Shown: positions 17,855 to 33,249 of the stretch, in pieces
Numbering within the stretch: position 1 is the stretch's first letter
How the letters are laid out: each line of letters begins with the position of its first letter
Assembly (NCBI GenBank): GCA_017475405.1
Contig: JAFVFN010000019.1
Span: 1-40,257 of the forward strand
Direction: 5' to 3'
DNA from: Elusimicrobiaceae bacterium
GTDB taxonomy: Bacteria; Elusimicrobiota; Elusimicrobia; Elusimicrobiales; Elusimicrobiaceae
Length of the DNA: 40,257 nucleotides
The notes under the pieces: generated by a model
The model's database searches: none
The model's input: only the letters and a program-made list of their open reading frames with translations
Told to the model about the DNA's origin: nothing
Position numbers and translations under genes: made by a program

Positions 17855-18057
17855 ACAAAAAAGACGGCCGTTACCTTTGAGCCTATCTGCTGACCCAATC
17901 ATAACAGCCGTGGTCTATCGCGATGCGATAAACACTTGGCACAAGATAACAGGTTTCGAAGGTCCGTTATTTTGTACCTAAAACGACTGTTTTTGGCGCA
18001 GATATGGCTTTGATTTCTCACAAGCTATCCGTATTCTTCGTACGGTTCCAAAAACAG
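17855..18057 (-). promoter_or_regulatory. Structured pilin leader A (attenuator-like)
   Basis: Minus-strand 5'-leader RNA. Segment 1 CTGTTTTTGG (18048-18057) pairs perfectly with segment 2 CCAAAAACAG (17987-17996). The overlapping segment 2' ACAGTCGT (17983-17990) pairs with segment 3 ACGGCTGT (17904-17911). Segment 3 also pairs with segment 4 TAACGGCCGT (17864-17873), followed by CTTTTTT, an intrinsic terminator. Further helices are a CCGTA/TACGG hairpin (18029-18045), variable helix P2 (17998-18008 with 17881-17890), P4 (17938-17953 with 17964-17978) and P5 (17916-17930). The element ends about 45 nt before the pilin ATG. Confidence 0.8.
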
Positions 18058-18072
18058 ATAAATTGTACTTAT

Positions 18073-18081
18073 ATATTAACA
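18073..18081 (-). promoter_or_regulatory. Extended -10 of pilin leader A
   Basis: TGTTAATAT on the minus strand, 15 nt before segment 1 of the leader. It overlaps the U-tract of the cysS terminator. The match to TATAAT is weaker than in the other three copies. Confidence 0.4.
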
Positions 18082-18114
18082 AAAAAGGACCGGGTTTACC
18101 AGTCCTTTTTTGTT
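18078..18114 (-). terminator. Intrinsic terminator of the cysS operon
   Basis: AACAAAAAAGGAC (18078-18090) pairs with GTCCTTTTTTGTT (18102-18114), with CGG/CCA-type extension. On the minus strand it ends in TTTTTTGTT. Confidence 0.9.
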
Positions 18115-18135
18115 AGTAACATACTATGTAGATAA

Positions 18136-19533
18136 CTATTTCTTTTCTATGGTTTGCCCTTGCGGGGTATCTTTGACCGTGTAGCCGGCTGCAGCAATCG
18201 CATTTCTGAGCTCATCGGATTTGGCCCAGTCTTTGGCTGCGCGTGCGGCTTTGCGCTGTTCTAACAGGGCGGCTACTTCTGCCGGGATTTCTACTTTTTC
18301 TTCTACAGGGGCCTTAAATACGTCAATGGCCAGTATAGAATCTGCAAAACGTAAAAATTCTACCTTTTCAGCGGCCGTCAACTCGTTAGAGCGTACGGCT
18401 TCCCACGTAACCGCTAATGCCTTGGGGGCATTTAAGTCATCCTGCATGGCGGCCGTAAACTTGTCTTTCCAGGAACGGGAGTTCGGAGTTTCTGATATGG
18501 AGTTGCCGGCTTCTTTTAGACAACCGCAGGCGATCGTGCGTAAATTTTTCAAGCTTTTGGTCGCGGTGTCCATACTCTCATAAGAAAACTCTAACTGTGT
18601 GCGGTAATGAGCGCCCAGGCATAAATAACGGTAAGCCAGCGGTTCATAGCCTTTTTCTTTAAGTACGTCTACGGTAACGAAAGTACCGCCGGATTTACTC
18701 ATTTTCCCGGAGCGCAGGATTAAAAATTCGCCGTGTACCCAGTAATTGACATACTTTTGTCCGGTAGCCGCTTCACTTTGGGCGATCTCATTGGTATGGT
18801 GAATGGTTACATGGTCAATCCCGCCGCAGTGGATATCCAGCGTGTTTCCCAAATACTTCATGGCCATGGCCGAGCATTCAATATGCCATCCCGGGAACCC
18901 GACTCCCCACGGACTGTCCCACTGCATTTGGCGTTTTTTATCTTTCGGGGAAAACTTCCACAAGGCAAAATCCGTCGGATTGCGTTTTTCATCACTCATC
19001 TCTACGCGAGCCCCGCCCTGCAGTCCGCTGATGTGGGCATGCCCAACCAGTGCATCATAATGGGGGAACTTGGACGTATCGTAATAAATTCCGTCCGAAG
19101 TGCGGTAAGTATATCCTTTTTCTTCCAGGGTTTTGACCAGTGCGATCATTTCCGGGATGTGCGCTGTGGCCCGGCTGATAATAGTCGGTCGCGTGCAGTG
19201 CAGCGCATCGTAATCCTGCCAAAATTTGGCCTCATAAAACTTGGCAATATCCCAGGCACTTTTCCCTTCGCGTGCAGCCCCTACTTCCATTTTATCTTCC
19301 CCGTCATCGGCGTCGGACACCAAATGCCCCACGTCGGTTACGTTCATGACGTGCTTTAATGGGTATTGTAAACGAATTGTACGAGCTAACAAATCTTCAA
19401 AAATATAAGTACGTAAGTTCCCAATATGCGCAAAGTTATATACGGTAGGTCCGCAGCAATACATCGTTACTTCCTGAACGTTTTGCGGGGTAAAAGTTTC
19501 TTTGCGGTGTGTGGCGGTGTTATAAAGCTGCAT
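18136..19533 (-). CDS. cysS: Cysteinyl-tRNA synthetase
   Basis: The protein has 465 residues, the normal CysRS length. The class I HIGH signature appears as FAHIGNLRTYIFEDL, and KMSKS as GKMSKSGG. The zinc-site residues are in CCGPTVYN, GWHIECSAM and HHTNEIAQSE. The C-terminal anticodon-binding part includes LLEQRKAARAAKDWAKSDELR. It charges tRNA-Cys with cysteine. It starts 2 nt after the lipoprotein gene and is last in the yacL-ispDF-lipoprotein-cysS operon. Confidence 0.97.
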   Translation of the reverse strand: MQLYNTATHRKETFTPQNVQEVTMYCCGPTVYNFAHIGNLRTYIFEDLLARTIRLQYPLKHVMNVTDVGHLVSDADDGEDKMEVGAAREGKSAWDIAKFYEAKFWQDYDALHCTRPTIISRATAHIPEMIALVKTLEEKGYTYRTSDGIYYDTSKFPHYDALVGHAHISGLQGGARVEMSDEKRNPTDFALWKFSPKDKKRQMQWDSPWGVGFPGWHIECSAMAMKYLGNTLDIHCGGIDHVTIHHTNEIAQSEAATGQKYVNYWVHGEFLILRSGKMSKSGGTFVTVDVLKEKGYEPLAYRYLCLGAHYRTQLEFSYESMDTATKSLKNLRTIACGCLKEAGNSISETPNSRSWKDKFTAAMQDDLNAPKALAVTWEAVRSNELTAAEKVEFLRFADSILAIDVFKAPVEEKVEIPAEVAALLEQRKAARAAKDWAKSDELRNAIAAAGYTVKDTPQGQTIEKK

Positions 19534-19534
19534 A

Positions 19535-32460: not shown

Positions 32461-32470
32461 TAACATGGTT

Positions 32471-32504
32471 GATCAGCATCATTGATATATCAATGATGCT
32501 GATC
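32471..32504. terminator. Perfect 34-bp palindrome after rpoD
   Basis: GATCAGCATCATTGATAT is immediately followed by its reverse complement (one shared centre), so all 34 bases pair. The tail lacks a clean U-run. It separates rpoD from the convergent pilin at 32520. Confidence 0.7.
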
Positions 32505-32519
32505 CGTAGTATTGATTTA

Positions 32520-33020
32520 TTAATATTGGGGCAGTCGATAGGAGCCAAGAACACTCCGCGGTCCTCCTTGACTCACATTTTTGCATACTTTATCACTAAG
32601 TGAATTAACTTCGCCTGCCCAACAAGCCCAATAAGGCGTTTTGCCGCAAGAATAAGATAGCGAAAGATGGATATCAGGCATAGAACAATGAATCCCACAA
32701 CGTGATTCATCTCCACTAATTATACATTGCCAGTCTCCAAAATTTTTACAATTATATCCTGCAGTTCCTTTGCAGGTCGTCGCGTCGTCTGGTACCGAAA
32801 TATCCAATTTACTATAATAGGCGGTATACTCTCCGTTGGCTAAGAAATATGCTTCTTGTGCTTGGGCAATGGCCTTTATAAATGGCATAAAGCGCATAAT
32901 TTTACTTTTTGTGACTGCTATTTGATATTGCGGCAATGCCACGGCAGCTAAGATACCGATGATGAGTACCACCACCAAAAGTTCTATGAGTGTGAAACCT
33001 TGCATCGTTGTGTGTGTCAT
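32520..33020 (-). CDS. Type IV pilin/PulG-like protein, class II leader (D)
   Basis: A prepilin of 166 residues. The leader MTHTTMQG ends in Gly and is followed by FTLIELLVVVLIIGILA. The domain has LANGEYTAYYSKLDISVP and an unusually Cys-rich middle (TCKGTAGYNCKNFGDWQC, SRCGIHCSMPD, SYSCG), plus the C-terminal pair (YWACWAGE ... KVCKNVSQGG). The frame is open to 33140, but that part is leader. AAGGAGAAC lies before ATG 33020. It is convergent with rpoD. Confidence 0.9.
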   Translation of the reverse strand: MTHTTMQGFTLIELLVVVLIIGILAAVALPQYQIAVTKSKIMRFMPFIKAIAQAQEAYFLANGEYTAYYSKLDISVPDDATTCKGTAGYNCKNFGDWQCIISGDESRCGIHCSMPDIHLSLSYSCGKTPYWACWAGEVNSLSDKVCKNVSQGGPRSVLGSYRLPQY

Positions 33021-33056
33021 AAGTTCTCCTTGGATATGTCTGCTTATGAAACCAAT

Positions 33057-33249
33057 AAAGACGGCTGCCTTACACAGGGATGATGCACATGCCCGCACAA
33101 AACAGCCGTGGTCTACTGCAACGCAGTAAACGCTCGGCACAGAGTAACGGGTTTCGAAAGTCCGTTATCCTATGCCTAAAACAGCTGTTTCTGGAGTGCA
33201 TCATCGCTTTTACAAGCCATCCGTATTCCTCATACGGTTCCAAAAACAG
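33057..33249 (-). promoter_or_regulatory. Structured pilin leader D (attenuator-like)
   Basis: Minus-strand RNA. Segment 1 CTGTTTTTGG (33240-33249) pairs with segment 2 CCAGAAACAG (33185-33194, one G-U). ACAGCTGT (33181-33188) pairs with segment 3 ACGGCTGT (33102-33109). Segment 3 pairs with segment 4 CAGCCGT (33061-33067), followed by CUUUAUU, the weakest terminator of the four. P2 is GATGATGCAC (33196-33205) with GTGCATCATC (33079-33088), 10 perfect pairs. P4 is 33136-33151 with 33162-33176. P5 (33111-33131) has TACTGC/GCAGTA instead of TATCGC/GCGATA, so both arms changed together. Confidence 0.8.

What the first reader, a model, noticed from the sequence alone, without database searches (positions are those of the whole stretch)
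17855..33249. A four-copy family of ~200-nt structured pilin leaders
Four minus-strand pilin genes (starts 17809, 22757, 27964, 33020) each have an upstream element (17855-18057, 22802-23002, 28016-28212, 33057-33249) with the same order of helices. The order is a hairpin near the 5' end, outer helix P2, inner helix 2:3, long hairpin P4, short hairpin P5, and a terminator-like hairpin ending in U's 40-50 nt before the start codon. Each has its own extended -10 upstream. I do not recognise it as a known riboswitch or leader class. It looks like a cis-acting RNA dedicated to pilin genes.
Basis: partly seen in the sequence, partly recalled or inferred. Interest (0 to 1): 0.93.

Follow-up and report, generated by a model that had tools for sequence, protein, structure and literature searches.

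The report
Hundred-copy RNA switch before pilin genes
A gut bacterium carries at least 127 copies of one folded RNA element, 121 of them directly ahead of pilin genes, and each copy is predicted to work as an on/off switch for the gene behind it; related bacteria place the same element ahead of other surface and DNA-restriction genes.

Summary
A covariance model from the four window copies finds 127 full-length copies in the 1.68-Mb genome (a lower bound); 121 precede a pilin gene. All five helices covary in a relative (58 copies). No Rfam family matches above threshold.

The 3' arm of P2 also pairs with the 5' arm of the terminator, so P2 plus terminator competes with an antiterminator. And a helix of mostly 9-11 bp joins the P2 loop to the terminator loop in all 127 copies, with a different sequence in each. 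Predicted folding gives antiterminator first, terminator last.

It is not dedicated to pilins. It occurs in 94 of 340 Elusimicrobiota genomes searched; outside the pilin-rich genomes it mostly fronts other genes, among them glycosyltransferases, outer-membrane proteins and restriction-modification genes.

Best explanation: a new class of cis-acting transcription attenuator for accessory surface and defence genes, amplified on pilins here. Termination, trigger and the role of the private helix are predicted, not shown.

The parts
17861..18057 (-). leader copy 1
18048..18057 (-). copy 1 arm a (P2 5' arm)
18029..18045 (-). copy 1 hairpin P1
17998..18004 (-). copy 1 V5, private helix 5' arm (7 bp here)
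17987..17996 (-). copy 1 arm b (P2 3' arm; antiterminator 5' arm with the next 4 nt)
17938..17978 (-). copy 1 hairpin P4
17913..17933 (-). copy 1 hairpin P5
17903..17911 (-). copy 1 arm c (terminator 5' arm / antiterminator 3' arm)
17884..17890 (-). copy 1 V3, private helix 3' arm in terminator loop
17864..17872 (-). copy 1 arm d (terminator 3' arm, U tract follows)
17237..17809 (-). pilin gene behind copy 1
   Evidence: N_methyl
22803..23002 (-). leader copy 2
22993..23002 (-). copy 2 arm a
22974..22990 (-). copy 2 hairpin P1
22940..22949 (-). copy 2 V5
22930..22939 (-). copy 2 arm b
22881..22921 (-). copy 2 hairpin P4
22856..22876 (-). copy 2 hairpin P5
22846..22854 (-). copy 2 arm c
22825..22834 (-). 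copy 2 V3
22806..22814 (-). copy 2 arm d
22302..22757 (-). pilin gene behind copy 2
   Evidence: N_methyl
28016..28212 (-). leader copy 3
28204..28212 (-). copy 3 arm a
28185..28201 (-). copy 3 hairpin P1 (shifted in the alignment)
28152..28160 (-). copy 3 V5
28142..28151 (-). copy 3 arm b
28093..28133 (-). copy 3 hairpin P4
28070..28088 (-). copy 3 hairpin P5
28060..28068 (-). copy 3 arm c
28038..28046 (-). copy 3 V3
28019..28027 (-). copy 3 arm d
27437..27964 (-). pilin gene behind copy 3
   Evidence: N_methyl
33058..33249 (-). leader copy 4
33240..33249 (-). copy 4 arm a
33221..33237 (-). copy 4 hairpin P1
33196..33205 (-). copy 4 V5
33185..33194 (-). copy 4 arm b
33136..33176 (-). copy 4 hairpin P4
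33111..33131 (-). copy 4 hairpin P5
33101..33109 (-). copy 4 arm c
33079..33088 (-). copy 4 V3
33061..33069 (-). copy 4 arm d
32520..33020 (-). pilin gene behind copy 4
   Evidence: N_methyl

Best explanation
The four elements belong to a 127-copy family of about 200-nt structured RNA elements, 121 of them directly ahead of pilin genes, and each is predicted to act as a transcription attenuator that decides whether RNA polymerase reads into the gene behind it. The key strands come in the order a, V5, b, c, V3, d. As the RNA is made, a is predicted to pair with b (P2). When c and V3 emerge, b re-pairs with c, and V5 with V3 as a copy-specific extension; this antiterminator blocks the terminator. 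When d emerges, c can re-pair with d (terminator plus U tract) and P2 re-forms. Shown by sequence: the strands, their complementarity, and covariation of the helices. Predicted by RNAfold: the order of the folds. Inferred: that c:d really terminates, that the default is OFF, and that a signal acting on the conserved P4/P5 junction held by b:c, or on polymerase speed, keeps the antiterminator long enough for read-through. The signal is unknown.
For: Copies: 127 in one genome. Helices over the 127: P2 99.6%, T 99.1%, P1 98.4%, P5 98.4%, P4 92.4% of cells paired, with many compensations (one P5 pair is A-U 54, C-G 40, G-C 29 of 124). In sister genome G026 (58 copies, one used in building the model) 340 cells change on both sides against 84 in shuffles. 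Switch: b:c pairs in 100% of cells in the 4 copies, 93.0% of 1141 cells over 127, 94.0% of 464 in G026; 2 of 127 copies carry a coordinated change at one position of all four arms. Private helix: run of at least 7 pairs in 127 of 127 and at least 9 in 122; between copies at least 9 in 53 of 1259; Watson-Crick mean 9.7 against 4.36. Folding: before d is made the antiterminator is favoured in 126 of 126 copies folded (mean p 0.976); at full length the terminator is favoured in 118 of 126 (mean p 0.937). Terminator: at least 5 T in the 9 nt after the stem in 291 of 292 leaders against 17 of 292 further downstream. Promoter-like extended -10 in 80 of 127, 4.8 expected.
Against: No transcript, termination or binding data. 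b:c is nearly invariant, so its own covariation is weak (5 cells changed on both sides against 1.2 in shuffles, 3 of 500 reach it), and at the position of the four-arm change 12 other copies changed a and b only, leaving a U-G wobble in b:c. RNAfold ignores pseudoknots and kinetics; 8 of 126 copies, among them window copy 2 (p 0.71), are predicted to stay antiterminated at full length. With V3 scrambled the antiterminator is still favoured in 85% of copies (mean p 0.728 against 0.976), so V helps but is not needed in the prediction, and V fits both states. The model ends in U's, so the first 3-4 tail positions are partly selected. Alignments A5 and A9 were fitted to the structure. Diverged variants (L231, L241, L230, L269) keep the switch core but lack P4 plus P5, which weakens that junction as a universal sensor.
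Confidence: 0.74

Rival explanations
1. It is a metabolite riboswitch in the strict sense, perhaps for a cyclic dinucleotide, as some pilin genes elsewhere are under c-di-GMP riboswitches. The P4/P5 three-way junction would be the aptamer.
For: Three GGDEF proteins in the genome; conserved unpaired stretches flank P4 and P5; C. difficile has a c-di-GMP-II riboswitch before a pilin operon (PMC11477304, passages).
Against: No match to any Rfam riboswitch model. Cargo is broad. Diverged variants lack P4 plus P5. No binding data.
Confidence: 0.3
2. The leaders are mainly a source of about 200-nt RNAs that act in trans, the private V segment being the targeting part.
For: V is different in 127 of 127 copies, and in 18 of 96 syntenic cross-species pairs V is identical even where the rest of the leader is down to 76% identical.
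Against: V is fully used by its own partner arm in the same RNA in all 127 copies. No separate target was looked for genome-wide. Orthologue identity may only reflect descent: the other 74 of 96 pairs share 6 or fewer of 10 bases.
Confidence: 0.12
3. It is a constitutive 5' UTR with a leaky terminator: structure that tunes level or stability, with no signal and no switching.
For: All helices are also explained by a static P2 plus terminator fold, favoured at full length in 118 of 126 copies.
Against: Conservation of b:c pairing potential in 93-94% of cells over 127 and 58 copies and of V has no reason in a static fold.
Confidence: 0.15
4. It is a DNA-level element: a boundary or recombination arm that helps leader-gene cassettes move between slots.
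For: Leader and pilin are present or absent together at the cysS-rpsF slot (two empty sites of about 100 nt); slot contents turn over between species.
Against: Compensatory changes in every helix, a U tract and promoter-like boxes point to RNA. No recombinase, target duplication or inverted copy was seen; none was searched for specifically.
Confidence: 0.07

Closest known systems
Transcription-terminating riboswitches (e.g. pbuE adenine, Mn2+ riboswitch; seen as search listings PMC7707468 and PMC11087558; general scheme in PMC10043782, passages)
   Same: 5' element with mutually exclusive antiterminator and terminator and a co-transcriptional strand exchange
   Different: no Rfam class matches; at least 127 copies in one genome; a private long-range helix in each copy; ligand unknown and not shown to exist
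c-di-GMP-II riboswitch before the C. difficile pilin operon (PMC11477304, passages)
   Same: structured leader before type IV pilin genes
   Different: no sequence or fold match in Rfam; here a broad accessory cargo and many single-gene copies
Phase-variable loci (review PMC11868660, passages)
   Same: cargo: pili, surface-glycan enzymes, outer-membrane proteins, restriction-modification genes
   Different: the shared element is an RNA fold, not a repeat tract, invertible segment or methylation site; cell-to-cell variation is not shown
Antisense-RNA systems with variable kissing loops (ColE1, pT181; recalled, no call)
   Same: loop-loop pairing whose sequence is free to vary between family members
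   Different: both loops lie in one RNA; no antisense partner seen

Membership tests
intrinsic transcription terminator | G+C-rich hairpin directly followed by a U-rich tract | tested here: met
   c:d paired in 99.1% of 1142 cells; at least 5 T in 9 nt in 291 of 292 leaders, 17 of 292 in the control stretch
intrinsic transcription terminator | RNA polymerase terminates there | not testable with these tools
   needs in vitro transcription or RNA-seq
terminator/antiterminator attenuator | conserved alternative helix that uses a terminator arm | tested here: met
   b:c paired in 93.0% of 1141 cells and 94.0% of 464; its own covariation is weak
riboswitch | binds a small molecule or ion that sets the fold | not testable with these tools
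   no binding assay possible
any Rfam 15 riboswitch or leader class | match to the class covariance model | tested here: not met
   nothing on a leader reaches gathering score; one sub-threshold match overlaps copy 4 (miRNA model, E 2.1, 19.6 bits against 56)
leader-peptide attenuator | short translated ORF with a ribosome-binding site in the leader | tested here: not met
   125 of 127 leaders hold some short ORF from ATG/GTG/TTG, but only 16 of 127 one with an SD-like motif
LoaP/RfaH-type antitermination | specialised NusG paralogue in the genome | tested here: not met
   one NusG in the assembly, which is 93% complete
phase-variable locus | reversible on/off differences between cells | not testable with these tools
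   only the cargo list resembles it

The most novel reading that the evidence does not exclude
An RNA-only contingency system: a family of addressable attenuators, each carrying a private zip-code helix, lets one gut bacterium decide gene by gene which of more than 120 pilins (and, in relatives, which surface-glycan, outer-membrane and restriction-modification genes) is expressed, doing with RNA folding what other bacteria do with DNA phase variation.
Probability: 0.27. Interest if true: 0.96.

Novelty: new variant of a known kind. Interest (0 to 1): 0.87.

Why it matters
At least 127 copies of one structured leader in a 1.68-Mb genome would, if they work as predicted, be an RNA regulon of unusual size controlling nearly one family of surface proteins. 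The same element before restriction-modification and glycan genes in relatives suggests a general RNA solution for controlling contingency genes in a little-studied, mostly uncultured phylum. The private helix makes a clear question testable: does a long-range helix of free sequence set the timing of antitermination, or keep many near-identical RNAs apart?

Tried and rejected
Dedicated to pilins: rejected outside the pilin-rich genomes. Leader peptide: rejected, 16 of 127 with an SD-like motif. LoaP/RfaH-type antitermination: one NusG only. Known Rfam class: none above threshold.

Fifth strand e: an ACAG motif before the ribosome-binding site can pair with arm a. Self-pairing was no better than between copies (7.35 against 7.16), but its C/T base follows the G/A of arm a (60 and 14 against 1 and 9 unambiguous copies, Fisher p 1.8e-5, copies treated as independent). 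Left open.

V as a hypermutating tag: V looked random even between leaders 85-92% alike in their conserved columns. Searches showed identical V in 18 of 96 syntenic cross-species pairs, so free drift plus pairing constraint explains most of it; one near-identical pair (L132/L133, rest 97%) with 4 of 10 V bases shared stays unexplained. V selected against cross-pairing: not seen, cross-complementarity is no rarer than with shuffled V, and a few same-genome pairs differ by one base. In some searches the automatic V finder sometimes picked the antiterminator arm instead; those rows were not removed.

Spread beyond the phylum: 39 genomes of other phyla gave two weak matches in one Clostridia genome (E 1.1e-4 and 6.6e-4), which I read as repeats, not members. 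Viral contigs: 3 exact 17-mer matches, none confirmed by the model; a terminator pattern gave 0. Plasmids and phages: no match.

Papers: ten searches of an open-licence library listed nothing that I recognised as this RNA; subscription journals are mostly missing there.
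Full report
What is there. The four minus-strand elements are real and align end to end. Each ends 37-51 nt before a gene with a prepilin N-terminal motif. On these four alone, 96.3% of pair cells in the five helices are standard pairs, with 9 pairs changed on both sides (shuffle mean 3.0; slid structures 34-53% paired). A covariance model built from them finds 127 full-length copies in the window's own genome, 1,676,898 bases in 30 contigs; 150 of 787 candidates were scored, so 127 is a lower bound. 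They lie on both strands (65 and 62) of 27 contigs, median spacing 8.4 kb. Behind 121 of 127 lies a pilin gene: 120 by the motif search, one more (GFTFIELLV) read in its output, and 121 again. The six others are two GT2-like glycosyltransferases, a TupA-like ATP-grasp gene, two degenerate copies with other downstream sequence and one weak restriction-like gene. Of the 150 best prepilin-motif hits in the genome, 89 have a leader and 61 do not.

Structure. Over the 127 copies (alignment fitted to the model) P2 is paired in 99.6% of cells, T 99.1%, P1 98.4%, P5 98.4%, P4 92.4%. In sister genome G026 (58 copies held, one used in the second model) 34 of 48 pairs change on both sides, 340 cells against 84 in shuffles, 96.3% paired against 38-49% when slid. 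Rfam has no match on a leader above threshold, in the window or in 13 relative loci; the only sub-threshold overlap is a miRNA model on copy 4 (E 2.1).

The switch. Arm b (P2 3' arm plus the next bases) pairs with c, the terminator's 5' arm: 100% of cells in the four copies, 93.0% of 1141 over the 127, 94.0% of 464 in G026. This helix varies little, so its own covariation is modest (5 cells against 1.2); 2 of 127 copies have the coordinated change in all four arms, while 12 changed a and b only and keep b:c by a U-G wobble. Between b and c lie P4 and P5. After the terminator stem, 291 of 292 leaders have at least 5 T in 9 nt, against 17 of 292 at 25-34 nt further on; the first few of these positions are inside the model.

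The private helix. A segment 0-1 nt before b pairs with the terminator's apical loop: at least 7 pairs in 127 of 127 copies and at least 9 in 122, against at least 9 in 53 of 1259 between-copy comparisons; Watson-Crick mean 9.7 against 4.36. All 127 sequences differ, although a few pairs differ by one base. It is nested in the antiterminator and would be a loop-loop pseudoknot with the terminator; both are possible. In 96 syntenic cross-species pairs V is identical in 18, 8-9 of 10 in 4 and 6 or fewer in 74.

Folding. RNAfold on 126 of the 127 copies (one dropped for a gap) favours the antiterminator in all 126 before arm d is made (mean p 0.976) and the terminator in 118 of 126 at full length (mean p 0.937); 8 copies, window copy 2 among them, stay antiterminated. 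Scrambling V3 lowers the early antiterminator to 0.728 but it still wins in 85%. So strand exchange follows the order of synthesis, and the outcome should depend on how long the intermediate lasts. This is a prediction without pseudoknots or kinetics.

Distribution. 81 of 90 family genomes and 94 of 340 phylum genomes have a match at E 1e-4 or better; of the 94, 80 are in family f1, 13 in f21 and one weak one in f2. Copy numbers differ widely: 127 here, 92 in G026, 46 in G041, 44 in G055, 25 and 22 in two f21 genomes, 1-4 in most of 18 low-copy genomes looked at; scored candidates were capped, so high counts are lower bounds. Nothing convincing turned up in 39 genomes of other phyla, viral contigs, plasmids or phages.

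Cargo. Among 292 distinct leaders, those from G026 precede 55 pilins, 1 other, 2 cut off; from G041/G055 16 and 1; from other Elusimicrobiaceae 22 and 41; from f21 and f2 4 and 23 (best matches, not a random sample). Of 61 non-pilin genes listed 30 were scanned against Pfam: 8 surface-glycan or sulfatase-type genes (GT2 three, GT8, TupA, pyruvyl transferase, sulfatase two), 3 outer-membrane genes (OMP barrel two, Chlamydia-type PMP), 5 restriction-modification genes (HSDR_N, two N6/N4 methylases, one of them type III, EcoRI methylase, GmrSD) and 3 others (YrbL, DUF4823, phage-collar type) pass the curated cut-off; 11 have nothing above it. Pili, surface glycans, outer-membrane proteins and type I/III restriction-modification are the classic phase-variable repertoire (PMC11868660, passages). 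That is a resemblance of cargo, not evidence of phase variation.

Slots. At cysS-rpsF the window has leader plus pilin in about 0.95 kb; two relatives with 91% CysS identity have about 100 nt between the genes (L040, L041), and G026 has a different leader and pilin there (in the other 37 of 40 loci rpsF was not found). At the acyl-CoA dehydrogenase-HIT slot 13 of 30 loci show both flanks: this genome has leader plus pilin, 6 have a pilin without leader, 6 have no recognised pilin. A cut-off match sits at the end of one further locus (L367). So leader-gene units come and go at fixed slots.

How it most likely works. Shown: the element, its copy number, its position, the competing pairings and their conservation. 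Predicted: the order of folds. Inferred: termination at c:d, a default OFF state, and a signal that prolongs the antiterminator, perhaps through the conserved P4/P5 junction or polymerase speed. Against a universal junction sensor, four diverged variants keep the core without P4 plus P5. The genome has three GGDEF proteins, so c-di-GMP is a candidate only. It works like a terminator/antiterminator attenuator; membership of the riboswitches cannot be claimed without a ligand.

Noticed in passing
window 5112-5171, 8902-8961, 14762-14821, 23038-23097 (+): The plus-strand pilins share another front end, TTGAC-NN-T12-NN-TATTCT, a promoter-like site with a T tract as spacer. In held own-genome loci 24 of 26 such sites precede a pilin; 22 of those 24 have T12 (16-nt spacer), 2 have T13 (17-nt). 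A slippage-tunable promoter is possible.
   Followed up: partly
G000, whole genome: At least 150 prepilin-motif matches above the Pfam cut-off in a 1.68-Mb genome (150 of 257 candidates scored).
   Followed up: partly
L132 and L133, 1501-1707: Two near-identical leaders (97% outside V) before the same restriction-type gene in two species share only 4 of 10 V bases, both arms changed together.
   Followed up: partly
L118, L123, L131, L132, L138, L142, L143, L146 upstream of the leader: Many relatives have a small hairpin (often AAGCC-N7-GGCTT) just before the leader instead of a clear extended -10.
   Followed up: no
L231, L241, L230, L269: Shorter, diverged relatives with the a/V/b/c/d core but one hairpin or none in place of P4 plus P5.
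   Followed up: partly
own genome, 0-55 nt after the leaders: An ACAG/ATAG motif before the start codon covaries with the G/A of arm a, a possible fifth strand.
   Followed up: partly
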